Shown: positions 30,046-43,743 of the stretch, piece by piece
Layout: every line of letters begins with the position of its first letter
Numbering within the stretch: the stretch's first letter is position 1
Origin: Pseudacidovorax intermedius
Lineage (GTDB): Bacteria; Pseudomonadota; Gammaproteobacteria; Burkholderiales; Burkholderiaceae_C
Assembly (NCBI RefSeq): GCF_003350475.1
Contig: NZ_QQAV01000007.1
Coordinates: 1 to 64,000, forward strand
Reading direction: 5' to 3'
DNA length: 64,000 bases
Notes under the pieces: generated by a model
Told to the model about the DNA's origin: nothing
The model's input: the letters and a program-made list of their open reading frames with translations, nothing else
The model's database searches: none
Made by a program: the position numbers and the translations under genes

Positions 30046-30732
30046 TCAGACGGTGCCCGGCGTGCGGCTGAGCCGGGCCTTGCCGTAGCTGCGGTAGCGG
30101 TCGCGCACCGTCGCCATCTCCGCAGCATCCAGCACCACCGGTGTGCCCAGCTGGGCGCTCATCCAATACTGCCGCGCCAGCGTCTCCAGCTTGGCCGCAT
30201 TGGCAACGGCCTTCTCGAGGGAGAGGGCGTGGCAGATCATGCCGTGGTTGGCCAAGAGGCAGGCCGTGTGCCCGGCCAGTGCCTCGACGGCCGACGCCGC
30301 CAGCGCATCCGTGCCGAAAGTCGCATAGGCGGCGCAGGGCACCTCGTCGCCACCGAAGCCCGCCAGCATGTAGTGGAAGGCCGGAATGGGGCGGCGCTGG
30401 GCCGACACGGCCACGCAGGCATCCGAGTGGGTGTGGACCACCGCCATCGCTTGCGGAAAGTGCCGGTAGATGGCCGTGTGCATGGACCATTCGCTCGACG
30501 GGATCCCCGGCGAGCGGTTCTCGCCGTCCATGGTGATCGACACGATGGCCTGAGCGTCGATGTTGTGGGCGTCGGCGCCTGCGGGGCTGATCAGCGCACC
30601 GCCATCGAAGCGGCAGCTGATGTTGCCGGCGCTGCCTGTGTTGAGGCCCAGGTCGGCCAGCCGGCGGTAGCTGTCGGCCAGCGCCTGGCGAAGGGTGTCC
30701 TCGGAAATCGGGGCAGGGGTGGAAGTCGTCAT
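30046..30732 (-). CDS. otnC: 3-oxo-tetronate 4-phosphate decarboxylase (OtnC-like class II aldolase)
   Basis: A 228-residue class II aldolase/adducin-fold protein. The metal and catalytic residues are E81 (PSSEWSMH), H100 and H102 (VHTHSDA) and H163 (ANHGM). Members next to an OtnK kinase decarboxylate 3-oxo-tetronate 4-phosphate to dihydroxyacetone phosphate in four-carbon acid-sugar catabolism. It lies 52 bases downstream of otnK on the same strand. The third usual enzyme, a tetronate dehydrogenase, is absent from the window. Confidence 0.87.
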   Translation of the reverse strand: MTTSTPAPISEDTLRQALADSYRRLADLGLNTGSAGNISCRFDGGALISPAGADAHNIDAQAIVSITMDGENRSPGIPSSEWSMHTAIYRHFPQAMAVVHTHSDACVAVSAQRRPIPAFHYMLAGFGGDEVPCAAYATFGTDALAASAVEALAGHTACLLANHGMICHALSLEKAVANAAKLETLARQYWMSAQLGTPVVLDAAEMATVRDRYRSYGKARLSRTPGTV

Positions 30733-30784
30733 CGGTCGGCTTTCTGATGAGAGGTGAGGTTGCAGCAGGGGGCGGAGACTTCCG

Positions 30785-32068
30785 CTACCCGCCGTGGGCC
30801 ATGCTCTGGAGCATGGGCAGCAGCATGTCGGCGGGGCCGAGCTTGCCGGACTTGAGGCACAGCGCGAGGCGGGCTTCGCGCGCGTCGTCGGTCACGGCGC
30901 GGGCCACGCCCGGGCCTTCATAGGCGCCCACGACCAGGCGGTTCACATCCAGGTGGCGGAGCACCGCGCCGGAGGTCTCTCCGCCGGAAATGACGAATCG
31001 CCGCACGCCTGCGTCGCGCAGGCGCAGGGCCAGGCGTCCCAGCACCTCCTCGGCCAGGGCGGCGGCGCCCAGCTTGCCGGCGCGGGCCTGTACGCGCTCG
31101 ACCTCGGCGGCATCGGCGGACGTGGCGATGGCGACCGGCCCCGCCTCGAGCAGGGGCAGCGCCCAGGCAAGGGCCTCGCCCACCACGTCGGCGCCTTCGA
31201 GCGCGCGGACCATGTCGAGCCAGAGCACCGGCCGGTGCAGGGCGAAGGCGCGCAACTGCTCGATGGAGCGGCCGGCGCAGCTGCCGGCCAGCACGACGGC
31301 GGGGCCTGCCACGGGTGGCAGCGCCTGGTCGGCCGGCGCTTGCGCCAGCCAGCCGTTGCGCCGCCAGTGCGCCGGGTAGTAGGCGCCGATGGAGGAATTG
31401 CCGGTCATGAGCGGCCAATCCCAGGTGAGGGCCGCAAGCGCCGCGAGATCGTCCGGTTCGGCCGCATCGGCAATGGCAAAGCCCACGCCCGCCGCCTGGA
31501 GCTGGGCGACGTGCGTGCGCATGGCCTGCACGCCGGCATGCACCACCTGCTGGGGCAGCAGCCCCACTCGGGTCGCCGTCTGGCGCTGCAGCGTGCGCAC
31601 GAGGTTGGGGTCGAGCATGGGCGTCAGCGGATCGAATCGCTTGGGCGACTCGGAGATCAGCATGTCGTCCGCGAACAGATGCCCCTGGAAGACGCGGCGC
31701 CCCGCCTCCGGAAAAGAAGGGCAGAAGGCCGTGAAGCGGGCGCCCGTCATCTCGCGCAGCACGTCGGCGCAGGGGCCGATGTTGCCGGCGTCCGTCGAGT
31801 CGAAGGTGGCGCAGTACTTGAAGAAGAGCTGGCGCACGCCCCGCGCCTGCAGCGCCCGGGCGCCCTCGGCAAAGGCCTGCACGGCCTCGTGCGCCGGCAC
31901 CACGCGGGTCTTGCCGGCGATGACGGCGGCCTCGATGTCGCGGGGCAGGGCGTCCAGCGCCGAGGGATGCGTCACGAAGCCGCAGCGCACCCCCTGGGCC
32001 ACGAGCATGGCGGCGAGTTCCATGCCGCCGGTCAGGTCATCGGCGAGGGCGCCGAAGAGAAGGGCCAT
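30785..32068 (-). CDS. otnK: 3-oxo-tetronate kinase (OtnK, four-carbon acid sugar kinase)
   Basis: A 427-residue kinase of the family once called DUF1537. It has an N-terminal sugar-acid binding domain (opening FGALADDLTGGMELAAML) and a C-terminal nucleotide-binding domain with RRFVISGGETSGAV. It phosphorylates 3-oxo-tetronate (from erythronate or threonate) at O4, giving the substrate of OtnC. It is transcribed divergently from the aminotransferase-like gene at 32181 with 112 bases between them, so the two operons may share control. Confidence 0.9.
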   Translation of the reverse strand: MALLFGALADDLTGGMELAAMLVAQGVRCGFVTHPSALDALPRDIEAAVIAGKTRVVPAHEAVQAFAEGARALQARGVRQLFFKYCATFDSTDAGNIGPCADVLREMTGARFTAFCPSFPEAGRRVFQGHLFADDMLISESPKRFDPLTPMLDPNLVRTLQRQTATRVGLLPQQVVHAGVQAMRTHVAQLQAAGVGFAIADAAEPDDLAALAALTWDWPLMTGNSSIGAYYPAHWRRNGWLAQAPADQALPPVAGPAVVLAGSCAGRSIEQLRAFALHRPVLWLDMVRALEGADVVGEALAWALPLLEAGPVAIATSADAAEVERVQARAGKLGAAALAEEVLGRLALRLRDAGVRRFVISGGETSGAVLRHLDVNRLVVGAYEGPGVARAVTDDAREARLALCLKSGKLGPADMLLPMLQSMAHGG

Positions 32069-32119
32069 TCAAGTCTCCTTGCGTTGGAAAAAAAGCGCCC
32101 GCGGCATCCAAGGGCTATT

Positions 32120-32145
32120 GCGTTACATAAAACATGATATATCCT
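32120..32145. promoter_or_regulatory. AT-rich divergent promoter region with GATATATC
   Basis: A conspicuously AT-rich island in the otnK/aminotransferase gap contains the perfect palindrome GATATATC (32136-32143) preceded by TTACATAAAACAT. It is the obvious place for promoters of both operons, and a candidate site for the GntR regulator encoded at 37576. Confidence 0.4.
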
Positions 32146-32180
32146 ACGGCCGAAATCGACGACCACCAAGGCTTCTTCCC

Positions 32181-33434
32181 ATGTCTTCCGAAACTTCCAG
32201 CGCCGGTGCCGGCGAGCGGGACCACCTTCTGCGCCAGCGCGCCCTCAAGGTGGTGCCGGGCGGCATGACCGGGCATCTGAACGCGGCCCAGCTGCCCGCG
32301 GGCTATCCGCAGTACTTCGCCCGCGGGCAGGGCTGCCGCGTGTGGGACGTCGATGGCCGCGAGTACATCGACTTCATGTGCAGCTGGGGCCCCAACCTGC
32401 TGGGCCATGCCCATCCGCAGGTGGACGAGGCGGCCCGCCGCCAGCAGGCGCTGGGCGATTGCCTCAACGGCCCGACCGAGCGCTTCGTCGAGTTGGCCGA
32501 GCGCTTCGTGGCCCGCACCGCCCATGCGGACTGGGCGCTGTTCCAGAAGAACGGCACCGATGCCACCACCATCTGCCTGATGGTGGCCCGTGCCGCCACC
32601 GGCAAGCGCAAGGTGCTGGTGGCCACCAAGGCCTATCACGGCGCCGACCCGTGGTGCACGCCGGTACCGGTGGGCATCACCGCCGAGGACCGGGCGCATC
32701 TCATCTACTACACCTACAACGACACGGCGAGCCTGGACGCCGCCGTGGCCAAGGCCGGCGACGACCTGGCCGCCATCGTGTGCGCGGCCTTCAAGCACGA
32801 CCTGGGTGTCGACCAGGAGCTGCCCACCGCCGCGTTCGCCCGCCACGCCCGCCAGCTGTGCGACAAGGCCGGGGCAGCCCTGATCGTGGACGAGGTGCGT
32901 GCGGGCATGCGCGTGCATGCTGGTGGCAGCTGGGAAACGGTGGGCGTGCGGCCCGACCTGTGCGCCTGGAGCAAGTCCATCGCCAACGGCTACGCCCTGG
33001 CGGCCGTCACCGGCGTGGACAGCCTGCGCGATGCCGCCACCCGCATCTATGCGACGGGCTCCTTCTGGTCGGGCGGCGTGGCCATGGCGGCCAGCCTGGC
33101 CACGCTGGACGTGGCCGATGCGCAGGACGTGGTCGGCCATGTACAGGCCATGGGCCAGCGTCTGCGCGACGGCATCGCCGCCCAGGCCGCCAGCCACGGC
33201 ATGCCGGTGCGCCAGACCGGCCCGGCCGCGCTGCCGCTGATCCTGTTCGAGGACGATCCGGCCTTCGAGAAGGGCTCGGCCTTCACCGTCGAGGCCCTGC
33301 GCCGCGGGGTCTACCTGCATCCCCGGCACAACATGTTCCTGTCGCTCGCGCACACCGAGGCCGACATCGACCAGGCACTCGAAGCCACCGACGCCGCCTT
33401 CGCCGCCGTGTCCCGGCGCTACGGGTCCCGATGA
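32181..33434 (+). CDS. Class III aminotransferase / glutamate-1-semialdehyde aminomutase-like protein
   Basis: A 417-residue PLP enzyme of fold type I. PLP-binding D237 (ALIVDEVRAGMR) and Schiff-base K265 (AWSKSIANGYA) are present, with FQKNGTDATT as phosphate-binding segment. The opening RALKVVPGGMTGHLN resembles glutamate-1-semialdehyde 2,1-aminomutase, but the genome neighbourhood is catabolic, so it is unlikely to be HemL. It probably transfers or shifts an amino group on the imported compound. It is the first gene of the operon and overlaps a possible start of the next one. Confidence 0.85.
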   Translation: MSSETSSAGAGERDHLLRQRALKVVPGGMTGHLNAAQLPAGYPQYFARGQGCRVWDVDGREYIDFMCSWGPNLLGHAHPQVDEAARRQQALGDCLNGPTERFVELAERFVARTAHADWALFQKNGTDATTICLMVARAATGKRKVLVATKAYHGADPWCTPVPVGITAEDRAHLIYYTYNDTASLDAAVAKAGDDLAAIVCAAFKHDLGVDQELPTAAFARHARQLCDKAGAALIVDEVRAGMRVHAGGSWETVGVRPDLCAWSKSIANGYALAAVTGVDSLRDAATRIYATGSFWSGGVAMAASLATLDVADAQDVVGHVQAMGQRLRDGIAAQAASHGMPVRQTGPAALPLILFEDDPAFEKGSAFTVEALRRGVYLHPRHNMFLSLAHTEADIDQALEATDAAFAAVSRRYGSR

Positions 33435-33469
33435 CGTTGCCGGACTCCATGATTGAAGGAGAGATGCAC

Positions 33470-34612
33470 ATGGCATCCGCCCCCCGTCCCACGCCCGCCG
33501 GCGCGGCCGACCCTGTCGGCGGCGCCTCCATCGAGATCACGCGGCTGGCCAAGCGCTTCGGTGCCGTCCGCGCCGTGGACGATGTCTCGCTGCATGTCCG
33601 GCCGGGCGAGTTCCTGGCGCTGCTGGGCCCCAGCGGCTCCGGCAAGACCTCCATCCTCATGAGCATCGCCGGCTTCGAGCTGCCCGATGCCGGTCAGATC
33701 GCCATCGACGGTCGCGACGTGACCTACCTGCCGGCCAACCATCGCAACCTGGGCATGGTCTTCCAGAAGTACACGCTGTTCCCGCACCTGACGGTGCTGG
33801 ACAACGTGGCCTTCGGCCTCAAGATGCGCGGCGTGGCCAAAGGCGAGCGCCATCGCCTGGCCGAGCAGGCACTGGCCACCGTGCGACTCGCCGGCCTGGG
33901 CGCGCGCATGCCGGCCCAACTGTCGGGCGGGCAGCAGCAGCGCGTGGCCCTGGCCCGGGCCATCGTCTACCGGCCGAAGGTGCTGCTGATGGACGAGCCA
34001 CTCAGCGCCCTCGACAAGAACCTGCGCGAGGAGATGCAACTGGAGATCAAGCGCCTGCAGTCGCAGCTGGGCATCACCGTCGTCTTCGTGACCCACGATC
34101 AGGGGGAGGCGCTGACCATGGCCGACCGCGTCGCCATCCTCAACCAGGGCCGCATCCAGCAGCTGGACGAGCCCAAGGCGCTGTACGAACGGCCGCGCAA
34201 CCGCTTCGTCGCCGGCTTCATCGGCGAGACCAACTTCATCCCCGTCGGCGTGGGGCCGTTGCGGGGCGATGCGGCCACGGTGCAGCTGCCCGGCGGCGCG
34301 CACCACTGCGAGGTGGGTGCGCAGGCGCTGGTGGGCCTGGACGCTGCGGGCGGCCGGGGCGTGGCGGCGCTGCGGCCGGAGCAGATCGCGCTGGTGAATC
34401 CCGAAGACCCGTCCGCACTGCGCGCCCGCGTGGCCGGCGTGATCTACAGCGGCTCCACCGTGCTGTGCATCGCCAACCTGGACGACGGCACCGAGCTGCG
34501 TGCCCGCCTGTCCGATCCGAGCCGGGTGAACGTGCAGGCCGGTGACCAGGTCGGCCTGCGCTGGTCGCCCGAGGCGCTGCGCGTCTATGGCGAAGAGGCG
34601 GCCACGGCATGA
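33470..34612 (+). CDS. ABC transporter ATP-binding protein (PotA/spermidine-type)
   Basis: A 380-residue ATPase of the polyamine/opine/iron importer class. It has Walker A GPSGSGKTS (53-61), signature QLSGGQQQRVALARA, Walker B LLMDEPLSALDKNLREEM, and a C-terminal TOBE-like region of about 120 residues. ATG at 33470 has GGAG at 33458-33461 with an 8-base spacing. An ATG at 33431, overlapping the previous stop, would add 13 residues but lacks a ribosome-binding site. Confidence 0.88.
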   Translation: MASAPRPTPAGAADPVGGASIEITRLAKRFGAVRAVDDVSLHVRPGEFLALLGPSGSGKTSILMSIAGFELPDAGQIAIDGRDVTYLPANHRNLGMVFQKYTLFPHLTVLDNVAFGLKMRGVAKGERHRLAEQALATVRLAGLGARMPAQLSGGQQQRVALARAIVYRPKVLLMDEPLSALDKNLREEMQLEIKRLQSQLGITVVFVTHDQGEALTMADRVAILNQGRIQQLDEPKALYERPRNRFVAGFIGETNFIPVGVGPLRGDAATVQLPGGAHHCEVGAQALVGLDAAGGRGVAALRPEQIALVNPEDPSALRARVAGVIYSGSTVLCIANLDDGTELRARLSDPSRVNVQAGDQVGLRWSPEALRVYGEEAATA

Positions 34613-35523
34613 GCGCCGTCGCCCCTCCCGTGGCGGCATCGGCCCTGGCGCCACCGTCGCCGCTGCGTCGGCTCTGGCTGGGCGGCCGGCAGCTCAGTGG
34701 TGGCTGGACGGCCTTGCTGCTCGCGCCTTTCTTTGCGCTGCTGCTGATCGTGTTCCTGTATCCGCTGCTGAGCCTGCTGTCGCTCAGCGTGCTGGAGCCG
34801 CACCCCACGCTGGACAACTACGCCCGCGTGTTCGACAACCCCGTCTATCTGCGGGTGATGGTGCGCACCGGCTGGATCAGCCTGCTCACCACCGTGCTGG
34901 CGTTGGTGCTGGGCTTTCCCATCGCCTACATGATGACGCGCGTGAAGGGCGCCGTTGCCCTGCTGCTGACGGCCTGTGTGCTGCTGCCGCTGTGGTCCAG
35001 CGTGCTGGTGCGCACCGCGGCGTGGATCGTGCTGCTGCGCCGTGACGGCATCGTCAACAACGCCCTGCAGTGGCTGGGCCTGACGGGCGAGCCCATGAAG
35101 CTGCTCTACACCGAGGGCGCCGTCGTGCTGGCCATGGCCCATGTGCTGCTGCCCTTCCTGATCCTGCCGATCTACTCGGCGCTCAAGAACATTCCTGACG
35201 ACTACATGCGGGCGGCCGCCATGCTGGGCGCCAACCGTCGGCGCGCCTTCTTCGAGGTGCTGCTGCCCATGAGCCGGGCCGGCATCTGGAGCGGCTGCCT
35301 GATGGTCTTCCTCTCGGCGCTGGGCTTCTTCGTCACGCCCGCGCTGGTGGGCAGCCCGCAGGAACTGATGATCGCCACGCTGGTGTCGCAGCAGGTGCGC
35401 GAGATGCTCGACTGGCCTTTTGCGGCCGCGCTGATCGGCGTGCTGATGGTGGTCGTGGCCACCCTGACGATGGTCTTCAACAAGGCCGTGAGCTTCAACC
35501 GTCTGATGGGAGGCGGCGCATGA
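34609..35523 (+). CDS. ABC transporter permease (PotB type)
   Basis: A 304-residue inner-membrane permease with about six hydrophobic segments. Its binding-protein-dependent transport motif reads AAAMLGANRRRAFFEVLLPMSRAGI, placing it in the PotB/spermidine-type group. It overlaps the ATPase gene by 4 bases and the PotC-type gene by 4 bases, so the three are translated together. Confidence 0.88.
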   Translation: MSAVAPPVAASALAPPSPLRRLWLGGRQLSGGWTALLLAPFFALLLIVFLYPLLSLLSLSVLEPHPTLDNYARVFDNPVYLRVMVRTGWISLLTTVLALVLGFPIAYMMTRVKGAVALLLTACVLLPLWSSVLVRTAAWIVLLRRDGIVNNALQWLGLTGEPMKLLYTEGAVVLAMAHVLLPFLILPIYSALKNIPDDYMRAAAMLGANRRRAFFEVLLPMSRAGIWSGCLMVFLSALGFFVTPALVGSPQELMIATLVSQQVREMLDWPFAAALIGVLMVVVATLTMVFNKAVSFNRLMGGGA

Positions 35524-36359
35524 CCGACACCCCGAGCGCCCTGCCGGCCCCCCGCAACAAGGCCCGCTTCGACCTGGGCAGCCTTTCCCTGCGCGTCTAT
35601 GTGTGGCTGGTGGTGCTGTTCATCATGCTGCCCACGCTGATCATCGTGCCGATGTCCTTCAGCCCGGCGGACTATCTCGAGTTCCCGCCGCGCGGCTTCA
35701 CGCTGCACTGGTACGAGGAGTTCTTCGCCGATCCGCAATGGCAGCGCGCCACGCTGCTGAGCCTGCGCGTGGCGGCGCTCACCATGGTCTGCTCGGTCGT
35801 GATCGGCACCATGGTGGCGTACGCCATCGTGCGCGGCGCCGCCCGCCTGCGTCCGGCCACGCAGCTCATGGTCATCGGTCCGGTGATCGCGCCGCACATC
35901 GCGGTGGCGGTGGCCTGCTACCTGTTCTACCAGCGCCTGGGCGTGGTGGGCACGATGACCGGCTTCGTCGCGGCGCACACCGTGCTGGCGCTGCCCTTCG
36001 TCGTCTTCACCGTCTCGGCTGCGCTGTCGCGCGTGGACCCCGACCTGGAGTCGGCCGCCATGAGCTGCGGCGCCAGCCGGCTGCGCGCCTTCTTCCTGGT
36101 GACGCTGCCGCTGATCGTGCCGGGCCTGCTGAGCGGTGCGCTCTTCGCGTTCATCATTTCCTTCGATGAGCCGGTGGTGTCCTTCTTCGTCTCCAGCGTG
36201 CGTCAGCGCACGCTGCCGCGCCGGATGTTCGAGGACATCGAGCAGAACCTCACGCCGGTCATTCCCGCCATCGCGACGCTGCTGACCCTGCTGTCGATCG
36301 CGGTGCTCGTCGCCGCCGCGCTGTTGCGCGTCATGGAGGCCCGGCGGCGCAGCCGCTGA
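35520..36359 (+). CDS. ABC transporter permease (PotC type)
   Basis: A 279-residue permease with six predicted membrane segments. The EAA-type loop is ESAAMSCGASRLRAFFLVTLP, followed by IVPGLLSGALFAFIISFDEPVV, typical of PotC. It pairs with the preceding permease. 51 bases separate it from the binding-protein gene, with an AAGGAG ribosome-binding site in the gap. Confidence 0.88.
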   Translation: MTDTPSALPAPRNKARFDLGSLSLRVYVWLVVLFIMLPTLIIVPMSFSPADYLEFPPRGFTLHWYEEFFADPQWQRATLLSLRVAALTMVCSVVIGTMVAYAIVRGAARLRPATQLMVIGPVIAPHIAVAVACYLFYQRLGVVGTMTGFVAAHTVLALPFVVFTVSAALSRVDPDLESAAMSCGASRLRAFFLVTLPLIVPGLLSGALFAFIISFDEPVVSFFVSSVRQRTLPRRMFEDIEQNLTPVIPAIATLLTLLSIAVLVAAALLRVMEARRRSR

Positions 36360-36410
36360 GCCCTCTGCCTTCTCTCCCTATCCCTGGTCTTCACTCGCAA
36401 GGAGTTCGTG

Positions 36411-37490
36411 ATGATGAATTGGCTCGATCCACGCAAGGGCGCCCGCGCGCTCGTCCTCGGCGGCGCGGCGCTGCTCGGTGCCGCTGGCGCCTCGGCCCAG
36501 GCCCTCGAGAAGGAGCTGGTGATCGCCACCACCGGCGGTCTGATCGAGAAGGCGCTGGTGCAGTCCTTCTACACGCCGTTCTCCAAGGCCAAGGGCGTCG
36601 AGGTGATCCCCGCCGCCATCGAGGTGCCCGACCAGTGGGCCAAGGTGCAGGCCATGTCGCGCAGCGGCGGCATGGAGTTCGACATCGTCACCGCCACGCC
36701 GCCCGACCTGGTGCAGAAGAAGGACCTGCTGCAGCCCATCGACTGCAGCAAGCTGCCCAGCGTGACGGCCAACGGCGTCAAGGGCGCCTGCACGCCCTAC
36801 GGCGTGATGCGCACCGTGGGCGGCATGCAGATCGGCTACAACACCGACGTCTTCAAGGACGGCAAGGGCCCCAAGACCTGGGCCGACTTCTGGGACACCG
36901 CCAAGTTCCCCGGCCCGCGTGGGCTGCCCGACACCGGCGACCGCGAATGGTGGGTGCCCGTGGCCGCCCTGCTGGCCGATGGCGTCGCGCCCGACAAGCT
37001 CTTCCCGCTCGACCTGGACCGCGCCTACAAGAAGCTCGACAAGCTGCGCCCCAGCATCGCCGTCTGGTGGAAGAGCGGCGATCAGCTCCAGCAGACCATG
37101 CGCAGCAAGGAGGTGGTCATGACCATGGGCTACTCGGGCCGCCTCATCTCGCTGATCAATGCCAAGGTGCCGCTGGCCGTGTCGTGGGACGGCGCCATCC
37201 GCGACGTGGGCTACATGGCCATCCCCAAGGGGGCGCCGCACCCCAAGGCCGCCATGGCCTACCTGGACTTCTTCTACAGCCTGCCGCCGGAGCAGCACGT
37301 GAAGTTCGTCGATGCCGTCAGCTACGACACCGGCAACGCCAAGACCGCCAGCCTGTTCCCGCCCGAACGGCGGGCCATGCTGGCCACCTCGGCCGAGAAC
37401 TTCGACAAGCTGATCGTGGCCGACTACGAGTGGATCGGCAACAACCGCCAGATGCTGCGCGACCGCTGGATCGCCTGGCTGGGCCGCTGA
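36411..37490 (+). CDS. ABC transporter substrate-binding protein (PotD-like, type II fold)
   Basis: A 359-residue binding protein with a signal peptide ending near residue 29 (GAAGASAQ). The mature protein opens ELVIATTGGLIEKALVQSFY and later has GYNTDVFKDGKGPKTWADFWD, the usual lobe-crossing block of the spermidine/putrescine and thiamine-type receptors. Real ligands of this family vary widely, so a polyamine should not be assumed. ATG at 36411 follows AAGGAG by 6 bases. It is followed by a double hairpin before the regulator gene. Confidence 0.88.
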   Translation: MMNWLDPRKGARALVLGGAALLGAAGASAQALEKELVIATTGGLIEKALVQSFYTPFSKAKGVEVIPAAIEVPDQWAKVQAMSRSGGMEFDIVTATPPDLVQKKDLLQPIDCSKLPSVTANGVKGACTPYGVMRTVGGMQIGYNTDVFKDGKGPKTWADFWDTAKFPGPRGLPDTGDREWWVPVAALLADGVAPDKLFPLDLDRAYKKLDKLRPSIAVWWKSGDQLQQTMRSKEVVMTMGYSGRLISLINAKVPLAVSWDGAIRDVGYMAIPKGAPHPKAAMAYLDFFYSLPPEQHVKFVDAVSYDTGNAKTASLFPPERRAMLATSAENFDKLIVADYEWIGNNRQMLRDRWIAWLGR

Positions 37491-37512
37491 GCCGGAAGGC
37501 CGGGCAGGCGGT

Positions 37513-37554
37513 GCGCAGCGGCCCCGATACTCGCTGCGCCGCCGCCCCGGCGGC
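37513..37554 (+). terminator. Double hairpin after the PotD-like gene
   Basis: GCGCAGCG (37513-37520) pairs with CGCTGCGC (37532-37539), and the overlapping GCCGCC (37538-37543) pairs with GGCGGC (37549-37554), followed by TTCCTT. The two stems are mutually exclusive at their junction. This is a candidate attenuator between the transporter genes and the regulator. Confidence 0.4.
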
Positions 37555-37575
37555 TTCCTTCGCAGCCCCACAGAG

Positions 37576-38325
37576 ATGAACATGTCCACCCCTGGTCTCA
37601 ACGTCGTCGGCCGAACCAACCTCGCCAGCCAGATCTACGAAAGCCTGCGCGAGAAGCTCATGTCCGCGGTCTTCCAGCCCGGGCAGCGGCTCAAGATCCG
37701 CGAGCTGGCCAAGGAGATCGGCACCAGCGAGACGCCCGTGCGCGAGGCCCTCATCCAGCTGGTGCGCGACCGCGCCCTGGAGATGAAGGAGGGCTACTTC
37801 ATCCGCGTGCGGCAGCTGAGCCTGGCCGAATACCTGGAGTTGCGCGACATCCGGCTGGCGCTGGAGCCGCTGGCGGCCGAGCGGGCGATCCCGCTGCTCG
37901 ACGACGCGGCGATCCGGCAGTTGACCGAGTCGCACCGCCTGCTGATGCGGGCGGAGAAGACGCGCGACTACCGCGCCGCGCTTCAGCACAACTTCGACTT
38001 CCACTTCGGCATCTATCGCCGCTCGGGCATGCCGCAGCTCACCGAGTTGCTCGACCGCATTTGGGTGCAGGTGGGGCCGATGCTCAACTTCCTGTACCCG
38101 CACGGCCATCCCAGCTACGACGCCGAGCACCAGCACATGAACGTCCTCAAGGGCCTGCAGGCGCGCGACGTAGCCGTGGTCACCCAGGCCATCCGCGACG
38201 ACCTGGTCGAAGGCGGACGCAACTTCGTGAAGGTGCTCACCGAGATCGACCACAACCCCGAGCGCGCGGCAGAGCTGCTGGCGCTTCGCAACCAGCCGGC
38301 GCCCCCCGGCAAGACACCGCCCTGA
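37576..38325 (+). CDS. GntR-family regulator (FadR/FCD subfamily)
   Basis: A 249-residue regulator. Its N-terminal winged helix holds LKIRELAKEIGTSETPVREALIQL, and its helical FCD effector domain (about 85-225) contains the metal/ligand-type residues HNFDFHFGIYRRSG and H-rich DAEHQHMNVL. FCD regulators usually repress catabolic operons until a small carboxylate binds. It sits within the operon, 3 bases before the dimethylformamidase-like small subunit gene, so it is probably autoregulated with it. Confidence 0.9.
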   Translation: MNMSTPGLNVVGRTNLASQIYESLREKLMSAVFQPGQRLKIRELAKEIGTSETPVREALIQLVRDRALEMKEGYFIRVRQLSLAEYLELRDIRLALEPLAAERAIPLLDDAAIRQLTESHRLLMRAEKTRDYRAALQHNFDFHFGIYRRSGMPQLTELLDRIWVQVGPMLNFLYPHGHPSYDAEHQHMNVLKGLQARDVAVVTQAIRDDLVEGGRNFVKVLTEIDHNPERAAELLALRNQPAPPGKTPP

Positions 38326-38327
38326 CC

Positions 38328-38666
38328 ATGATGGACCACACCAGCGACCCCCAGGCCGCGCGCTATGTGCTGGACCCGAGCCGCACCGAGCTCGCCAGCG
38401 AGTTCCGCCGCAACATCCGAGGCCCCCACAGCGAAGAGCTGCGCAAGCTGCTGCACCGCATGCGCTGGGGCGCCTTTCCGGGTCGCTACCTGCTGCTGAC
38501 GGTCGAGCCCGGCCGCCGCTGGGCGCTGGCGCAGATGCCCGATGAGCGGGGGCAGAAGGTGAAGGTCTTCCACGACGTGGTCTTCGAGTCGCTGGACGAG
38601 GCCGAATGGCATGTCTTCAAGCTGCGCTGGCAGGCGCTCGCCGGCACCCCGCTGGACATCGACTGA
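38328..38666 (+). CDS. N,N-dimethylformamidase-like small (alpha) subunit
   Basis: A 112-residue soluble protein. Its second half (FPGRYLLLTVEPGRRWALAQ, then DVVFESLDEAEWHVFKLRW) lines up by eye with the C-terminal half of the dimethylformamidase small subunit, which has a GKYYIYTE/YRIA pattern and an EEAMHAVF helix. That subunit is about 130 residues and packs against the large catalytic subunit, whose homologue is encoded 29 bases downstream. Nothing else in the operon explains the gene. Taken alone it would look hypothetical; the pairing gives the call. Confidence 0.75.
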   Translation: MMDHTSDPQAARYVLDPSRTELASEFRRNIRGPHSEELRKLLHRMRWGAFPGRYLLLTVEPGRRWALAQMPDERGQKVKVFHDVVFESLDEAEWHVFKLRWQALAGTPLDID

Positions 38667-38695
38667 GCCTCACGCACGCACCGCATTCCTCCACC

Positions 38696-40963
38696 ATGAC
38701 CTTTCCCATCGAGACCAACGCCTTCGTCGGCTACCCCGACCAACTCAGCGTGCGCGCGGGCGAGCGCATCCGCTTCCACCTCAGCAGCGCGCAGCAGACA
38801 CAGGCCGACGTGAAGTTCGTGCGCGTGCGCTGCGCCGATGCCGACGCCACCGGCCCGGGCATCAAGTACCAGGAGATGGCGTCGCCGCTCGACGGCCTGC
38901 ATGCGGTGGCGCACCGCGAGGTGCCCTGCGGCTCCTTCCTGCATGTGCCGGAGGATGCGCGTCTGGCGCCCGCCGGGGCCTTCACCTTCGGCGCCTACAT
39001 CTGGCCCACCCGCCTGACCGACACGCCGCAGACCGTGATGGCACGCTGGTGCGACGACACGGGCCGGGGCTATGCGCTGCAGGTGAGCCGGGCCGGCGTG
39101 GCGCTGCGCGTGGGCAGCGATGCCGGAAACGCCGAGCTGGGGACGGGCGTGGCCTTGGAGCAGCGACGCTGGTACTGGGTGCAGGCCAGCCTGGACCCGG
39201 CCACGGGCGAGATGCACGTGCTGCAGTGCCGCCTGGCCGAGGGCGTGCTGCCCGAGCAGCGCCACGAGGCGCGGCGCACGGCGCCGGGCCCGTGGCAGAT
39301 CGACGCCCGATGCGGGTTGACGGTGGGCGCACATCTGCGCACCCGCACGGAGGTCCGCTGCGCCGGCCACTACGACGGCAAGATCGAAGGTCCGCGGATC
39401 GTGCTGGGAATCATGGAGGCCGACGCACTGCGCCGCTGCGACGAGGCGCCGCGGCCCGGCCAGGCCGATCCACAGCTGGTGGCCTGCTGGGACTTCTCGC
39501 AGGGCATCGAGACGCTCGACGTGCTCGACCTCTCGGCCAACCGCCTGCACGGCCGCCTGCACCAGTTGCCCTGCCGCGCCATGACCGGCGTGCGCTGGAC
39601 GGGCGACGTGCACGACTGGCGCGCCGCGCCGCAGCAGTACGGCGCCATCCATTTCCACAGCGACGACATCTACGACTGCGAATGGCCGGCGACGCTGGAG
39701 CTGGACGTGCCGCGCACATGGAAGTCCGGCTTCTACGCCCTGCGCCTGCGCCCTCCGGGCGAGGGCGGGGCGCGCGCCGCGGACGATGCCGAGACCTTCA
39801 TCACCTTCTTCATCACGCCCGCGGCCGATGCGGCACGAGCACCGCTGGCGGTGCTGGCGGCCAGCATGACCTACATGGCCTATGCCAACAGTGCGCTGCG
39901 GCTGCATGCCGTGCACTTCGAGGTGCTGACCGAGCGGCTGCTGATGCTGACCGGCGACGACGTCTACCTGCAGGAGCATCCGGAAGTCGGTCAGTCCACC
40001 TACGACCACCACATCGACGGCAGTGGTCGCGCCTACAGCTCCTGGCTGCGGCCGGTGCTGAACATGCGGCCCCGCTCCACGCCCGGCAACCTGGCCATCG
40101 ACAGCCACTTCCTGGACTGGCTGGAGGAGAAGGGCATCGACTACGACGTCATCACCGACGTCGAGCTGGACCGCCAGGGCCCGGGCGCGCTGGCCGGCTA
40201 CCGCACGCTTGCCACGCTGTCCCATCCCGAGTACTACAGCGAGGCCATGATGAACGGCATCATGGCCTTCCAGAACGCGGGCGGCCGCCACCTGGCCCTG
40301 GGCGCCAACGGCTTCTACTGGCGCTGCGCCTTCCATCCGCAGGCCCCTGCGGCGGTGGAAGTGCGCCGCGGCATGGCCGGCACCCGCACCTGGGAATCGC
40401 AGCCCGGCGAGGTGCACCTGGCCGGCACTGGCGAGCCGGGGGCGCTGTGGCGCCACAGCGGCTTCGCGCCGCAAAAGCTGATCGGCGTGGGCTTCGCGGC
40501 CATGGTCTACGACCATGCCGGCTACTACCTGCTGACGCCCGAGGCGGCCAACCCGCGGGTGGCCTTCGCCGTCGAGGGCATCGCGCCCGGCGAGCGCATC
40601 GGCGACTACGGTGTGCGCATCGGCGGTGCCGTAGGCATCGAGATCGACCGCTTCGACGTCGGCCTGGGCTCCCCGCCGCATGCGGTGATGCTGGCCACTT
40701 CGCACGGCCTCGGGCCGGGCGCGCTGCCCACGCCGGAGGAATACCGCACCACGGTGCACGGCCTGGATGGCGAGCAGAACGCGCTGGTGCGTGCGGACAT
40801 GGTGTTCTTCGAGACGGCCAACGGCGGCGCGGTCTTTGCGACGGGCTCGATCTCGTACGTGCTTTCGCTCAGCCACAACGGCTACGACAACAACATCAGC
40901 CGCATCACGGGCAATGTGCTGCAGCGCTTCCTGGACCCGACGCCTTTCGAGGTGCCGGCATGA
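38696..40963 (+). CDS. N,N-dimethylformamidase-like large (beta) subunit
   Basis: A 755-residue protein close to the family length (about 760). The N-terminal third contains a LamG/concanavalin-like sandwich (around 95-220, GAFTFGAYIWPT onwards), and the rest is the dimethylformamidase catalytic region. Published structures place one iron bound by Tyr, His and Glu in a Tyr...His-x-Glu arrangement. Here H510 and E512 (LSHPEYYS) fit that pair, with Y436 or Y447 as candidate tyrosine. Family members hydrolyse small amides, releasing an amine and a carboxylate; the substrate here is unknown. The stop overlaps the next start by 4 bases. Confidence 0.85.
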   Translation: MTFPIETNAFVGYPDQLSVRAGERIRFHLSSAQQTQADVKFVRVRCADADATGPGIKYQEMASPLDGLHAVAHREVPCGSFLHVPEDARLAPAGAFTFGAYIWPTRLTDTPQTVMARWCDDTGRGYALQVSRAGVALRVGSDAGNAELGTGVALEQRRWYWVQASLDPATGEMHVLQCRLAEGVLPEQRHEARRTAPGPWQIDARCGLTVGAHLRTRTEVRCAGHYDGKIEGPRIVLGIMEADALRRCDEAPRPGQADPQLVACWDFSQGIETLDVLDLSANRLHGRLHQLPCRAMTGVRWTGDVHDWRAAPQQYGAIHFHSDDIYDCEWPATLELDVPRTWKSGFYALRLRPPGEGGARAADDAETFITFFITPAADAARAPLAVLAASMTYMAYANSALRLHAVHFEVLTERLLMLTGDDVYLQEHPEVGQSTYDHHIDGSGRAYSSWLRPVLNMRPRSTPGNLAIDSHFLDWLEEKGIDYDVITDVELDRQGPGALAGYRTLATLSHPEYYSEAMMNGIMAFQNAGGRHLALGANGFYWRCAFHPQAPAAVEVRRGMAGTRTWESQPGEVHLAGTGEPGALWRHSGFAPQKLIGVGFAAMVYDHAGYYLLTPEAANPRVAFAVEGIAPGERIGDYGVRIGGAVGIEIDRFDVGLGSPPHAVMLATSHGLGPGALPTPEEYRTTVHGLDGEQNALVRADMVFFETANGGAVFATGSISYVLSLSHNGYDNNISRITGNVLQRFLDPTPFEVPA

Positions 40964-41889
40964 GCGCCGGCTCCGTCTTGGCGGAGGGCGTCCCTGACGC
41001 CGGTGACGCCGCACCACGCCCTGTGGCGACCGGTGCCGATCCGCGCTGGCAGGCGGCAGGCCGCCTGGCCCTGCCGACCTCCGAGTTGCGCGAGGTGGCC
41101 CGCATGCTGCGCCGCCAGGTGGTGCAGTTGGTGCGCCGCCACGGCCAGGGCTACGTGCAGCAGGGCCTGGGTGCCGCCGAGCTGTTCGCGAGCCTCTACT
41201 TCCACGAGGCGACCATCGATCCGGCCGACCCGCGCTGGTCGCGGCGTGACCGCTGCATCCTCTCGACCGCCCACAACTCGGCGCTCTTCCATGCGGCATT
41301 GGCGCTGCGCGGGATGATTCCCGAGGCCGATCTGGCCGGCTACGTCGTGGACGGCTCCGCGCTGGAGATCAATGTCTCCGAGCGCCTGGGGCCCGTGGTC
41401 GAAGGCACCTTCGGCTCGCTGGGGCAGGGCGTCTCGGCCGCCGCCGGCATGGCCCTGGCCTCGCGGCTGTCGGGTGAGGACTGGCGGGTCAACGTCATCC
41501 TCGGCGACGGCGAGCTCGAAGAGGGCCAGGTGTGGGAGGCCGCGATGTTCGCGGGCTCGCAGAAGCTGGGCAACCTCTGCGTGATCCTGGACCTGAACTG
41601 GATGCAGGTGGAGGGCCACACCGACCAGGTGCTGAAGCTCGCGCCCATCGCCGACAAGTGGCGGGCCTTCGGCTGGCAGGCCATCGAGGTCGACGGCCAT
41701 GATCTGGATGCCCTGGTCGCGGCCTTCGGCCTGGCCCGGGCCAACCGGGCGCAGCCCACCATCCTCATCGCCACCACCGTGCCGGGCAAGGGCGTGCGGG
41801 CGCTGGAGGGGGTGATCAGCCACAACGCCAAGCTGCCCGCCGATCTGGCCGATGCGGCCCTGGCCGAACTGGAGGCCCCCCATGCGTGA
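40960..41889 (+). CDS. Transketolase-like N-terminal subunit
   Basis: A 309-residue protein holding the thiamin-diphosphate domain of a split transketolase. It shows the GDGELEEG motif at 182-189, followed by NLCVILDLNWMQVEG, with LSTAHNSALFHAAL earlier. The partner pyrimidine domain is the next gene, overlapping by 8 bases. Split transketolases like this are frequent in dedicated pathways for unusual sugars. An N-terminal tail of about 35 residues is extra compared with the family. It is co-translated with the dimethylformamidase-like gene (ATGA). Confidence 0.88.
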   Translation: MSAGSVLAEGVPDAGDAAPRPVATGADPRWQAAGRLALPTSELREVARMLRRQVVQLVRRHGQGYVQQGLGAAELFASLYFHEATIDPADPRWSRRDRCILSTAHNSALFHAALALRGMIPEADLAGYVVDGSALEINVSERLGPVVEGTFGSLGQGVSAAAGMALASRLSGEDWRVNVILGDGELEEGQVWEAAMFAGSQKLGNLCVILDLNWMQVEGHTDQVLKLAPIADKWRAFGWQAIEVDGHDLDALVAAFGLARANRAQPTILIATTVPGKGVRALEGVISHNAKLPADLADAALAELEAPHA

Positions 41890-42940
41890 TGCCACCCTTT
41901 TCCCGTCGGTGCAGGCGGATGCCGTCGTCGTCGACGACTTCACCCAGGGCGGCGCCCATGCCGTCGCGCCGGCCGCGGGCGCATCGGCCGCCAGCCCCGC
42001 CGCCGTGCCACGCTATTACGGAGAGACGCTGCTGGCCCTGGCGCGCGAGCGCGGCCACATCGTGGCGCTGTCGGCCGACCTGAGCAGCTCCACCGAGACC
42101 GACCTGTTCCGCGATGCGCTGCCCGAGCGCTTCATCAACGCCGGCATTGCCGAGGCCAACATGGTCGGCGTGGCGGGCGGACTGGCGCGCAGCGGCATGC
42201 AGGCCTGGGTCCACACCTTCTGCGTCTTCGCCACCCGGCGGCCTTACGACCAGGTGGCCATGCAGGTGGCCTACCCCAAGGCCGACGTGAAGATCGTGGG
42301 CTTCCTGCCCGGGCTCGCCACCATCCTCGGCGTGAGCCACCAGGCCATCGACGACGTGGCGCTGATGCGGGCCCTGCCGAACATGACGGTGATCGAGCCC
42401 GCGGGCCCGGCGCAGGTGCCCGCCGCCGTGCGAGCGGCGGCCGACCACAAGGGGCCCGTCTACCTGCGCCTGCTGCGCGCCAGCCAGGCCTTGCCCGCGG
42501 GCACGCCCTGGATGCCGGTGCGCATCGGAGAGATCCAGCCGCTGGAAGCCGCCGAAGGCGAGGTGCTGCTGATCGCCAGCGGCCTGATGGTCGAGGTGGC
42601 GCTGGCCGCCGCGGCCCGCCTGCGGGCCCAGGGGTTGGGCGTGGCCGTGGCCAACGCCCACACGCTCAAGCCTTTCGACGACGACTTCGTGCGTGCACAG
42701 GCCCGCCAGCGCCGGCTGATCGTCACGCTGGAGAACCATTCGGTGATCGGCGGACTGGGCTCGGCCGTCGCCGAGGCGATGGCCGAAGCCGGGGGCGGCG
42801 CGCGCCTGCTGCGCCTGGGCGTGCGCGACCGGTTCGCGCAGGGCGCCTCGATGCCCTGGCTGTTCGAGCGCCACGGCCTCACGCCGCCGGCCGTGGCCGA
42901 GGCGGTCGGCCGCGCGCTGGCTGCCGGAGACGCGCGTTGA
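41882..42940 (+). CDS. Transketolase-like C-terminal subunit
   Basis: A 352-residue protein with the transketolase pyrimidine-binding and C-terminal domains. Visible blocks are LSADLSSSTETDLFRDALPERFINAGIAEANMVG, split by residue changes from classical enzymes, and the invariant glutamate in AGIAEANM. The C-terminal domain has VANAHTLKPFDDDFV. It carries an extra N-terminal tail rich in alanine (residues 1-40). It joins the N-terminal subunit to transfer a two-carbon unit between a ketose-like donor and an aldehyde acceptor. Confidence 0.87.
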   Translation: MRDATLFPSVQADAVVVDDFTQGGAHAVAPAAGASAASPAAVPRYYGETLLALARERGHIVALSADLSSSTETDLFRDALPERFINAGIAEANMVGVAGGLARSGMQAWVHTFCVFATRRPYDQVAMQVAYPKADVKIVGFLPGLATILGVSHQAIDDVALMRALPNMTVIEPAGPAQVPAAVRAAADHKGPVYLRLLRASQALPAGTPWMPVRIGEIQPLEAAEGEVLLIASGLMVEVALAAAARLRAQGLGVAVANAHTLKPFDDDFVRAQARQRRLIVTLENHSVIGGLGSAVAEAMAEAGGGARLLRLGVRDRFAQGASMPWLFERHGLTPPAVAEAVGRALAAGDAR

Positions 42941-43743
42941 GCGCCGAGCAGCGCATCACCGGCCGCACCGGAATCCTGTTCATCCTGGCCGATCCGGTCG
43001 CGCATGTGGTCGGCTCGGACCGGCTCAACGCGCGCTTCGCGGCCGAGGGGCTGGACATGGCGGTGTCGCCGCTGCATGTGCAGCCGAAGGACCTGGCGGC
43101 CGTCATTGGCACGTTGCGCCTGCTGCAGAACGTGCGGGGCTTCGGCGTGACCATCCCGCACAAGATCGCGGTGATGCCGCTGCTGGATGCGGTCACGCCG
43201 CGTGCGCGCCTGATCGGCGCGGTCAACTTCGTCCGCCGCAATCCCGGAGGCCGCCTCACGGGCGACAACCTCGACGGTCAGGGCTTCGTGGACGGACTGG
43301 CGGCCAGCGGCATCGGCCTGGCCGGCCGCCGCGTGCTGCAGCTGGGCGCGGGCGGTGCAGGCCGTGCGGTGGCCTTCGCCGTCGCCGAGGCGGGCGCGAG
43401 CGCGCTCTTCATCCACAACCGCACGGCGGCGCGCGCGCAGGCGCTGGCCGAGGCGGTGGGCGCGGCCTGGCCGGGCTGTGCGGCCGCGTCGGGGCCGGAC
43501 GATCCGCGTGGATTCGACGTGGTGATCAACACCACCTCGATGGGCATGCACGAGGGCGATCCGCTGCCCATGGACGTCGGTCGGCTCGCCGCTTCCACCG
43601 ATGTGGCAGAAATCATCATGACGCCCGCGCTCACGCCGCTGCTGGTGGCGGCGCAGGCCCGCGGCTGCCGGATCTCGCTCGGCACCTCGATGCTCGATGC
43701 GCAGTACGGGCTGGTGAAGCAGTTGCTGGGCATTCCGAGCTGA
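42937..43743 (+). CDS. Shikimate dehydrogenase (AroE)-like protein with altered substrate motif
   Basis: A 268-residue AroE-family protein. The catalytic lysine is in VTIPHKIAVM and the paired aspartate in TGDNLDGQGF; the nucleotide motif is LGAGGAGRAV. The usual shikimate-binding SxS motif near residue 15 is replaced: the sequence reads DPVAHVVGSDRLNARF. This argues against a shikimate pathway role. It starts at TTG 42937, overlapping the transketolase stop (TTGA); no ATG or GTG fits. As the last gene of the operon it may reduce or oxidise a pathway keto or hydroxy acid. Confidence 0.82.
   Translation: MSAEQRITGRTGILFILADPVAHVVGSDRLNARFAAEGLDMAVSPLHVQPKDLAAVIGTLRLLQNVRGFGVTIPHKIAVMPLLDAVTPRARLIGAVNFVRRNPGGRLTGDNLDGQGFVDGLAASGIGLAGRRVLQLGAGGAGRAVAFAVAEAGASALFIHNRTAARAQALAEAVGAAWPGCAAASGPDDPRGFDVVINTTSMGMHEGDPLPMDVGRLAASTDVAEIIMTPALTPLLVAAQARGCRISLGTSMLDAQYGLVKQLLGIPS

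What the first reader, a model, noticed from the sequence alone, without database searches (positions are those of the whole stretch)
30785..43743. Unrecognised catabolic locus: amidase of dimethylformamidase type, split transketolase, AroE-like dehydrogenase and PotABCD-type importer, facing otnK/otnC
Seen: a co-directional series of ten genes with many 4- or 8-base overlaps from 32181 to 43743, encoding a class III aminotransferase-like protein, importer, GntR regulator, two-subunit DMFase-like enzyme, transketolase halves and an AroE-like protein, with OtnK/OtnC diverging. Known: each family separately. Inferred: an imported nitrogen compound is deaminated or transaminated, an amide or imide is hydrolysed, a two-carbon unit is moved, and a C4 acid may end as dihydroxyacetone phosphate through OtnK/OtnC. 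I know no described pathway with this set.
Basis: partly seen in the sequence, partly recalled or inferred. Interest (0 to 1): 0.75.

Follow-up and report, generated by a model that had tools for sequence, protein, structure and literature searches.

The report
Conserved operon for breaking down amido-polyols
Soil and plant-associated bacteria share a co-regulated set of genes that probably imports a nitrogen-containing, sugar-alcohol-like amide, cuts off its acyl group, removes the nitrogen and splits the carbon chain; no description of this pathway was found, and it gives a likely natural setting for two enzyme types known so far mainly from breaking down a solvent and a mould toxin.

Summary
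The genes are real and correctly placed (eleven co-directional, not ten, facing otnK and a class II aldolase gene). The unit is conserved: all 13 genes also stand together, in other orders, in Bradyrhizobium stylosanthis and Bosea sp. OK403; large subsets occur in Roseomonas-type genomes and in Chachezhania. A palindromic site, TGATATATCA, found once in the window between otnK and the aminotransferase, lies upstream of otnK, potA, gntR, aminotransferase, E1 or transketolase genes in relatives and is rare in control loci, so OtnK/aldolase probably belong to the same regulon. The aminotransferase is of the FumI type (fumonisin aminopentol aminotransferase). Around it partners swap by function: amidase (DMFase-like, PF01425), thiamine enzyme (split transketolase, fused E1), kinase (OtnK, PfkB) with class II aldolase; one Bosea locus has a sphingosine-1-phosphate-lyase-like set instead. 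Best reading: import of an N-acyl-2-amino-1,3-diol, deacylation by an iron amidase, transamination to a ketose-like 2-keto-diol, then transketolase cleavage and/or phosphorylation plus aldolase cleavage. Chemistry is inferred; the substrate is unknown. No printed pathway with this set was found in the library searched.

The parts
30046..30732 (-). class II aldolase (called otnC; FucA/OtnC family), 228 aa
   Evidence: L-fuculose-P aldolase 195.6 of 264 bits, OtnC model 107.6 of 250; residues typical of class II aldolases (SSEW, HxH, NHG) conserved in 14 of 14 aligned rows (roles recalled)
30785..32068 (-). otnK, DUF1537-type kinase, 427 aa
   Evidence: NCBIfam 3-oxo-tetronate kinase 395.2 bits, cut-off 350
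32135..32143 (.). operator-like site TGATATATC in the otnK/AT3 divergent intergenic region (32069-32180)
   Evidence: only site in the window; 38 of 40 sites in 19 module loci lie within 300 bp upstream of a module gene
32181..33434 (+). FumI-type class III aminotransferase (AT3), 417 aa
   Evidence: best solved structure aminopentol aminotransferase 6hbs, E 1.8e-129, next 3.3e-48
33431..34612 (+). potA-like ABC ATPase, 393 aa
   Evidence: TIGR01187 potA 357.2 bits, cut-off 355.6
34609..35523 (+). potB-like permease, 304 aa
   Evidence: BPD_transp_1
35520..36359 (+). potC-like permease, 279 aa
   Evidence: reading frame; homologues in the same position of relatives; not scanned against Pfam
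36411..37490 (+). PotD-like solute receptor (opine/GABA subgroup), 359 aa; GTG start at 36408 possible
   Evidence: mannopine receptor 5l9s E 3.6e-55; E. coli-type PotD entries about 3e-13
37576..38325 (+). GntR/FCD regulator, 249 aa
   Evidence: GntR and FCD domains
38328..38666 (+). dmfA, small subunit of the DMFase-like amidase, 112 aa
   Evidence: profile of 37 homologues finds DMFase small subunit 6lvb_B, E 2.5e-7; the single sequence and a 7-sequence profile did not
38696..40963 (+). dmfB, large subunit of the DMFase-like iron amidase, 755 aa
   Evidence: DMFase 6lvb E 4.3e-135, N-acetyl-(R)-beta-phenylalanine acylase 8huy E 9.3e-121; iron ligands and catalytic residues kept
40960..41889 (+). 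tkN, N-terminal half of split transketolase, 309 aa
   Evidence: Transketolase_N 1.7e-39
41882..42940 (+). tkC, C-terminal half of split transketolase, 352 aa
   Evidence: Transket_pyr and Transketolase_C; split transketolase of Carboxydothermus 6yaj E 7e-62
42937..43743 (+). AroE-like dehydrogenase, 268 aa, TTG start
   Evidence: below every NCBIfam shikimate dehydrogenase cut-off listed; motifs

Best explanation
It is a catabolic regulon, probably GntR-controlled, for a soluble N-acylated 2-amino-1,3-diol or -triol (a sphingoid-head-like amino-polyol). Steps: (1) the PotABCD importer with an opine-type receptor takes it up; (2) DmfAB, an Fe(III) amidase, removes the N-acyl group; (3) the FumI-type aminotransferase turns CH-NH2 into C=O, giving HOCH2-CO-CH(OH)-R, a ketose-like compound; (4) the split transketolase takes the two-carbon end off, passes it to an aldose (phosphate) and releases R-CHO, and/or (5) the OtnK-family kinase phosphorylates the CH2OH next to the ketone and the class II aldolase splits the product to DHAP and an aldehyde (or decarboxylates it if R is COOH); (6) the AroE-like enzyme oxidises or reduces a neighbouring hydroxyl. 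Shown: the gene set, its conservation, the shared operator-like site, the family placements and conserved catalytic residues. Inferred: substrate class, order of steps, that the GntR protein binds the site, and that TK and kinase/aldolase are parallel outlets of one intermediate.
For: All 13 genes recur in B. stylosanthis L059 and Bosea L068 in different orders. In Chachezhania (Rhodobacterales) locus L211 has AT3, potABCD, gntR, a DmfB2-type gene and weakly similar tk halves (35-37%). One site links otnK, potA, gntR, AT3, E1 and tkN: 40 sites in 19 module loci (417 kb), 38 within 300 bp upstream of a module gene; 30 of 32 in the 16 loci not used to find the motif; against 5 sites in the 63 other dmfB loci (1166 kb), 5 in 13 split-TK controls (240 kb), 0 in 11 lone-AT3 loci, none upstream of a module gene. 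AT3 is FumI-type; FumI converts hydrolysed fumonisin B1, a 2-amino-3-ol, to the 2-keto compound with pyruvate (PMC2933618, Background read). Function slots around AT3 are filled by unrelated proteins: amidase by DmfAB, DmfB2-type or PF01425; TPP enzyme by TK halves or fused E1; kinase by OtnK or PfkB next to a class II aldolase. AT3 directly precedes tkN-tkC on one strand in L150, L176, L180, and diverges from a kinase-aldolase pair in L152, L153, L185, L192, L193, L194, in both deep clades of AT3. tkC at 50% identity or more occurs in 2 of 299 phylum genomes, both beside AT3; of 13 other split TKs (38-46%) none has an AT3, dmf or otn hit. Four genomes without AT3 near dmf (L063, L064, L065, L069) have it elsewhere at 59-66%, in L065's genome (L210) with the site 127 bp upstream. 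The Bosea locus L126, whose PotD nests among the others, has an S1P-lyase-like gene (1.1e-79), APH-type kinase and a second class III aminotransferase, and no FumI-type AT3 in its genome.
Against: No substrate is known and nothing was assayed. tk halves are in 4 and aroE in 6 of the 17 nearest dmfB loci, so neither is obligatory. Eleven of 22 Bradyrhizobium AT3 loci examined stand without amidase, TPP enzyme, kinase/aldolase or site (several have an unrelated-looking ABC importer about 10 kb away); of all 48 AT3-anchored loci only 10 show a TPP enzyme or kinase/aldolase pair and 30 an amidase. Of the distant AT3 copies in L063, L064 and L065 genomes none has module genes beside it (L208-L210; L209 is only 5 kb). 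The genome of L066 has dmfAB but no AT3. The 25 loci of the G465 family lack the site upstream of AT3 (1 site elsewhere). Among the split-TK controls, L201 has potABCD-like genes (25-43%) and an aroE hit (37%), L198 an E1 hit (36%) and L197 a PF01425 hit (33%). No random-gene control was made for the PF01425 amidase. FumI's known substrate has CH3, not CH2OH, at C1, so the kinase/aldolase step rests on slot logic only. L126 is a single example and its PotD branch is long.
Confidence: 0.5

Rival explanations
1. C4-acid route: the aminotransferase makes 3-oxo-tetronate (from 3-amino-2,4-dihydroxybutanoate or the like), which OtnK and OtnC turn into DHAP, or the transketolase splits into glyoxylate and a two-carbon unit. 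A special case of the same logic with R = COOH, and the nearest to the first reader.
For: OtnK passes the NCBIfam 3-oxo-tetronate kinase cut-off; the class II aldolase family includes the OtnC decarboxylases; both outlets would use one intermediate.
Against: OtnC cut-off missed (107.6 of 250); PfkB-type kinases stand in for OtnK in five loci of the G465 family (two checked by Pfam; three by similarity); AroE-like proteins lack the HSxSP-type serines in 7 of 7 aligned rows (role recalled); an S1P-lyase-type replacement in L126 does not suit an acid.
Confidence: 0.2
2. Opine-type catabolism: the substrate is a sugar-amine conjugate such as a mannityl opine or its amide; DmfAB and AT3 release and deaminate the amine part, TK and aldolase process the sugar part.
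For: PotD nearest to mannopine, agropine and GABA receptors among solved structures; SBP_bac_5-type receptors adjacent in L061, L064, L067, L068, L070 and L147.
Against: No opine oxidoreductase or deconjugase among the 13 genes; FumI acts on a primary amine of an alkyl polyol.
Confidence: 0.12
3. Breakdown of a complex antibiotic, xenobiotic or fungal metabolite (fumonisin-like, chloramphenicol-like or linear aminopolyol such as zwittermicin).
For: FumI family; several different amidases in the loci; TonB receptors in loci of the G465 family; these substances carry 2-amino-1,3-diol or 2-amino-3-ol ends (recalled).
Against: No carboxylesterase or ring-cleaving gene among the 13; broad distribution suggests a common natural substrate; structures recalled, not searched.
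Confidence: 0.1
4. Neighbourhood without function: genes of separate pathways parked together.
For: Order differs between genera and several genes are optional.
Against: Rearranged yet together, with a common site in front of the separate transcription units.
Confidence: 0.03

Closest known systems
N,N-dimethylformamidase (Paracoccus; PMC7686228)
   Same: two subunits; iron ligands Y399, Y440, E521 and active-site H519, N547, E657 all kept (window Y396, Y436, E512, H510, N538, E649), in 81 of 81 aligned rows
   Different: only distantly similar; the genomic setting points to another, larger amide; no DMF metabolism genes recognised beside it
N-acetyl-(R)-beta-phenylalanine acylase (PDB 8huy)
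   Same: same large-subunit family, named as an N-acyl hydrolase
   Different: different setting; its small subunit and neighbours were not examined
FumI, aminopentol aminotransferase of fumonisin catabolism (PDB 6hbs)
   Same: closest solved relative of AT3 by far (435 bits against 168)
   Different: window AT3 is in the other deep clade of the family; no carboxylesterase like FumD among the 13 genes
OtnK/OtnC tetronate pathway
   Same: OtnK passes its curated cut-off
   Different: aldolase misses the OtnC cut-off; no tetronate dehydrogenase of the usual type among the 13 genes (usual type recalled); regulon includes amidase and transaminase
Split transketolases, e.g. Carboxydothermus (PDB 6yaj); apulose-4-phosphate transketolase (recalled)
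   Same: two-gene transketolase
   Different: copies at 50% identity or more were seen only beside FumI-type AT3 or in loci of this module
Sphingosine-1-phosphate lyase route of sphingoid base breakdown
   Same: an alternative set in Bosea L126 next to homologous dmfAB and potABCD
   Different: absent from the window's 13 genes

Membership tests
DMFase-type iron amidase | large-subunit family DMFA2_C | tested here: met
   PF20254, 299.1 bits, cut-off 27
DMFase-type iron amidase | 2-Tyr-1-Glu iron site and catalytic His/Asn/Glu | tested here: met
DMFase-type iron amidase | cognate small subunit | tested here: met
   profile of 37 rows to 6lvb_B, E 2.5e-7
DMFase-type iron amidase | hydrolysis of dimethylformamide | not testable with these tools
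   needs an assay
FumI-type aminotransferase | closest solved relative is FumI, clearly ahead of GSAM | tested here: met
FumI-type aminotransferase | deaminates hydrolysed fumonisin B1 | not testable with these tools
   needs an assay
3-oxo-tetronate kinase OtnK | curated NCBIfam cut-off | tested here: met
   395.2 of 350 bits
3-oxo-tetronate 4-phosphate decarboxylase OtnC | curated NCBIfam cut-off | tested here: not met
   107.6 of 250 bits
Shikimate dehydrogenase AroE | curated NCBIfam cut-off | tested here: not met
   TIGR00507 153.2 of 200.2; the other listed models also missed
Shikimate dehydrogenase AroE | N-terminal HSxSP-type serines (substrate carboxylate; role recalled) | tested here: not met
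   HVVGS, HIIGT, HIIGS or HVRAS in 7 of 7 rows; HSLSP in 2egg
Transketolase | TPP-binding, pyrimidine-binding and C-terminal domains | tested here: met
   split over tkN and tkC
Transketolase | curated full-length transketolase cut-offs | tested here: not met
   each half alone scores below the full-length models; the halves were not scored joined
Spermidine/putrescine importer PotABCD | PotD receptor equivalog | tested here: not met
   46.7 of 582 bits; opine/GABA receptors nearer
Spermidine/putrescine importer PotABCD | PotA ATPase subfamily cut-off | tested here: met
   TIGR01187 357.2 of 355.6; the stricter PotA equivalog PRK09452 is missed, 355.5 of 482

The most novel reading that the evidence does not exclude
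FumI-type aminotransferases are the core of a widespread, undescribed bacterial pathway for N-acylated sphingoid-like amino-polyols: amidase, transaminase, then transketolase or kinase/aldolase cleavage, a counterpart to the sphingosine-1-phosphate lyase route, which replaces it in one Bosea locus. Fumonisin breakdown would be an offshoot of it.
Probability: 0.25. Interest if true: 0.85.

Novelty: new variant of a known kind. Interest (0 to 1): 0.63.

Why it matters
It offers a natural context for DMFase-like iron amidases and for FumI-type aminotransferases, both known mainly from man-made or mycotoxin substrates, and a short list of enzymes that can be tested one by one. If the substrate class is right, bacteria remove the head of N-acyl amino-polyols by transaminase plus transketolase or aldolase chemistry. 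A defined operator-like site and a solute receptor make the substrate directly searchable.

Tried and rejected
A plain polyamine substrate was set aside because the receptor is far below the PotD cut-off and nearer to opine/GABA receptors. Ordinary shikimate metabolism was rejected for the AroE-like gene. A phage or plasmid origin was not examined. Literature: no paper was found holding dimethylformamidase with transketolase and shikimate dehydrogenase, with gene cluster and aminotransferase, or with large subunit and N-acyl; 3-oxo-tetronate with transketolase gave 1 paper, by its title on a probiotic strain; others (95 papers, 10 listed; 548, 10 listed; 25, 10 listed; 46, 15 listed; 9 listed) showed no title or abstract start with such a set. 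'Not in print' means only that, in this library. PMC9858248 was seen as outline and section 3.1. A recalled acetolactate-synthase gene of the Sphingopyxis fumonisin cluster could not be confirmed. The three other TGATATATC sites of the window's genome had no hit to the module queries in the stretches fetched. An AlphaFold model of dmfA (mean pLDDT 88.7) was made but not searched, since one search had answered the question. The site count left out L057, L069 and L127-L136, counted L060 and L155 (one locus) twice and lacked the gene table of the TK controls; one search is the full recount and replaces it.
Full report
Observation. The eleven co-directional genes from 32181 to 43743 and the two diverging genes from 30046 to 32068 are intact reading frames in the stated families. 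Overlaps of four or eight bases join AT3-potA-potB-potC and dmfB-tkN-tkC-aroE.

Conservation. tblastn of the 13 window genes on these 80 (counts at 40% identity and half coverage) shows that the 17 nearest carry dmfA 16, potA 12, potB/C/D 12 each, AT3 10, gntR 10, aroE 6, otnK 6, otnC 6, tkN and tkC 4, against 26, 8, 1, 1, 0, 0, 1, 0 and 0 of the other 63. The cut at 17 was made after seeing the data. All 13 occur in L059 (B. stylosanthis) and L068 (Bosea OK403), with changed order and strand. Several of the 17 are short stretches or close relatives, so counts understate presence and overstate independence. In sampled genomes of the phylum, dmfB relatives at E 1e-15 are in 11 of 398.

A second anchor. 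AT3 found FumI-like relatives in 9 of 396 phylum genomes at E 1e-70, the window's own included, in 37 of 117 Bradyrhizobium and 54 of 149 genomes of the family of G465 at E 1e-100. Of the 48: dmfAB 7, DmfB2-type without dmfAB 6, PF01425 amidase 18 (one shared with DmfB2), together 30; TPP enzyme 4 (TK halves in L150, L176, L180; fused E1 in L147); kinase plus class II aldolase 7 (OtnK in L147, L194; PfkB in L152, L153, L185, L192, L193), together 10; none of these in 13: 11 lone Bradyrhizobium loci (of 22) and L175, L183 (coordinates). In an AT3 tree of 60 rows (quick method, midpoint root) TK and OtnK/aldolase partners occur on both sides of the deepest split; L194 and L147 are long branches.

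A third anchor. tkC at 50% identity or more was found in 2 of 299 phylum genomes, the window and G465, both beside AT3; G831 and G887 have it at 55% beside AT3. Thirteen other split transketolases (38-46%) have no AT3, dmf or otn hit; one stretch is 6 kb and one 15 kb long, and three carry weak aroE/pot, E1 or PF01425 hits.

Missing partners. For ten dmfB loci I searched the whole genomes: L063, L064, L065 and L069 have AT3 elsewhere (66, 66, 61 and 59%; the L064 copy has a stop inside the match); L061, L062, L067 and L072 have it near dmfB; L066 and L126 have none at E 1e-80. Around the distant copies, L208-L210 show no module gene (L209 is 5 kb), but L210 has the operator-like site 127 bp upstream of AT3; L211, in L069's genome (Chachezhania, Rhodobacterales), carries potABCD, gntR, a DmfB2-type gene and tk-like halves at 35-37%. 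OtnK relatives (34-51%) are in 10 of 10 and aroE relatives (38-59%) in 6 of 10 of these genomes, so their mere presence says little. L126 carries an S1P-lyase-like enzyme, a Dak1 protein, and an APH-type kinase and class III aminotransferase that match the two ends of NCBIfam PRK06148 below its full-length cut-off (the link to phospholyases is recalled) beside dmfAB and potABCD; its PotD nests within the group (95/98 support, but on a long branch).

Common control. A palindromic AT-rich site, TGATATATCA, occurs once in the window, at 32135-32143, between otnK and AT3. In 19 module loci (417 kb) there are 40 sites, 38 within 300 bp upstream of otnK, potA, gntR, AT3, E1 or tkN; the other two lie before, or in L061 near the start of, SBP_bac_5-type genes. 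The motif was found by reading the window, L039, L059 and L068; in the 16 module loci other than the window, L059 and L068 it is 30 of 32. Controls: 63 other dmfB loci 5 sites in 1166 kb, 13 split-TK loci 5 in 240 kb, 25 G465-family AT3 loci 1, 11 lone AT3 loci 0; none upstream of a module gene. Among the 17 nearest dmfB loci, 25 of 30 sites are upstream; L064, L066 and L069 have one stray site each; L063, L067, L071, L073 have none. The window's genome has four sites in all, its reversed-pattern control none. That the GntR protein is the binder is inference.

Enzymes. DmfB: all six active-site residues named in the DMFase paper (PMC7686228, passages read) are kept in the window and in 81 of 81 aligned rows, so they mark the family, not this subgroup. 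AT3: nearest solved structure is FumI, whose reaction is 2-amino to 2-keto on hydrolysed fumonisin with pyruvate as acceptor (PMC2933618, Background and Discussion read). AroE-like: catalytic-type Lys and Asp motifs kept, the HSxSP-type serines lost; a 5-ketofructose reductase is third among its solved relatives. Aldolase: class II residues kept in 14 rows. Roles of AroE and aldolase residues are recalled.

Mechanism. The recurring slots are amidase, FumI-type aminotransferase, and a way of breaking the carbon chain next to a new ketone: transketolase or E1-type TPP enzyme, kinase plus class II aldolase. Flavin monooxygenase genes stand near AT3 in L067, L172, L213 and L214 and could be a further way. 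Unrelated proteins filling the same slot limit the chemistry better than any one family name. The common denominator is R-CH(OH)-CH(NH-acyl)-CH2OH to R-CH(OH)-CO-CH2OH; an S1P-lyase route as in L126 would need the same motif. The receptor type argues for a water-soluble compound. I hold the unity of the locus at about 0.95, the substrate class at about 0.5, true sphingoid lipids much lower.

Noticed in passing
L126:8281-16267: Bosea locus with dmfAB and potABCD homologues plus S1P-lyase-like, Dak1, APH-type kinase and second class III aminotransferase genes: a possible bacterial sphingoid-type degradation operon.
   Followed up: partly
L061:12401-14566, L070:11742-14447, L147:12418-14679: Fused E1-alpha/E1-beta-like TPP enzyme in the place of the transketolase halves; no search for an E2 gene was made.
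   Followed up: partly
L067, L172, L213, L214: Flavin monooxygenase and PF01425 amidase genes near FumI-type aminotransferase.
   Followed up: no
L061:16021-17934, L064:12225-13793, L067:8006-9589, L068:14769-16358, L070:17703-19268, L147:10766-12367: SBP_bac_5-type (peptide/opine) solute receptors beside the module (L061 and L070 by similarity only); those of L061 and L070 have the operator-like motif at their start.
   Followed up: partly
L148, L149, L156, L157, L163-L168, L170: Lone FumI-type aminotransferase in a conserved Bradyrhizobium neighbourhood (in those checked: acyl-CoA dehydrogenase, TctC-type receptor, alcohol dehydrogenase), without the site: probably another role.
   Followed up: no
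L011 and L054 (G000:C1 847458-849530): A second, distant DMFase-like large subunit (30%) in the window's genome, with a weakly similar class III aminotransferase (25%) nearby.
   Followed up: no
L039:11072-12775, L059:12329-14002: A second-type DMFase C-domain protein (DmfB2) follows dmfB in Bradyrhizobium; relatives stand near AT3 without dmfAB in L150, L152, L185, L188, L192 and L193.
   Followed up: partly
window 59958-60043: tRNA-Thr (CGT), the only tRNA found in the window.
   Followed up: no
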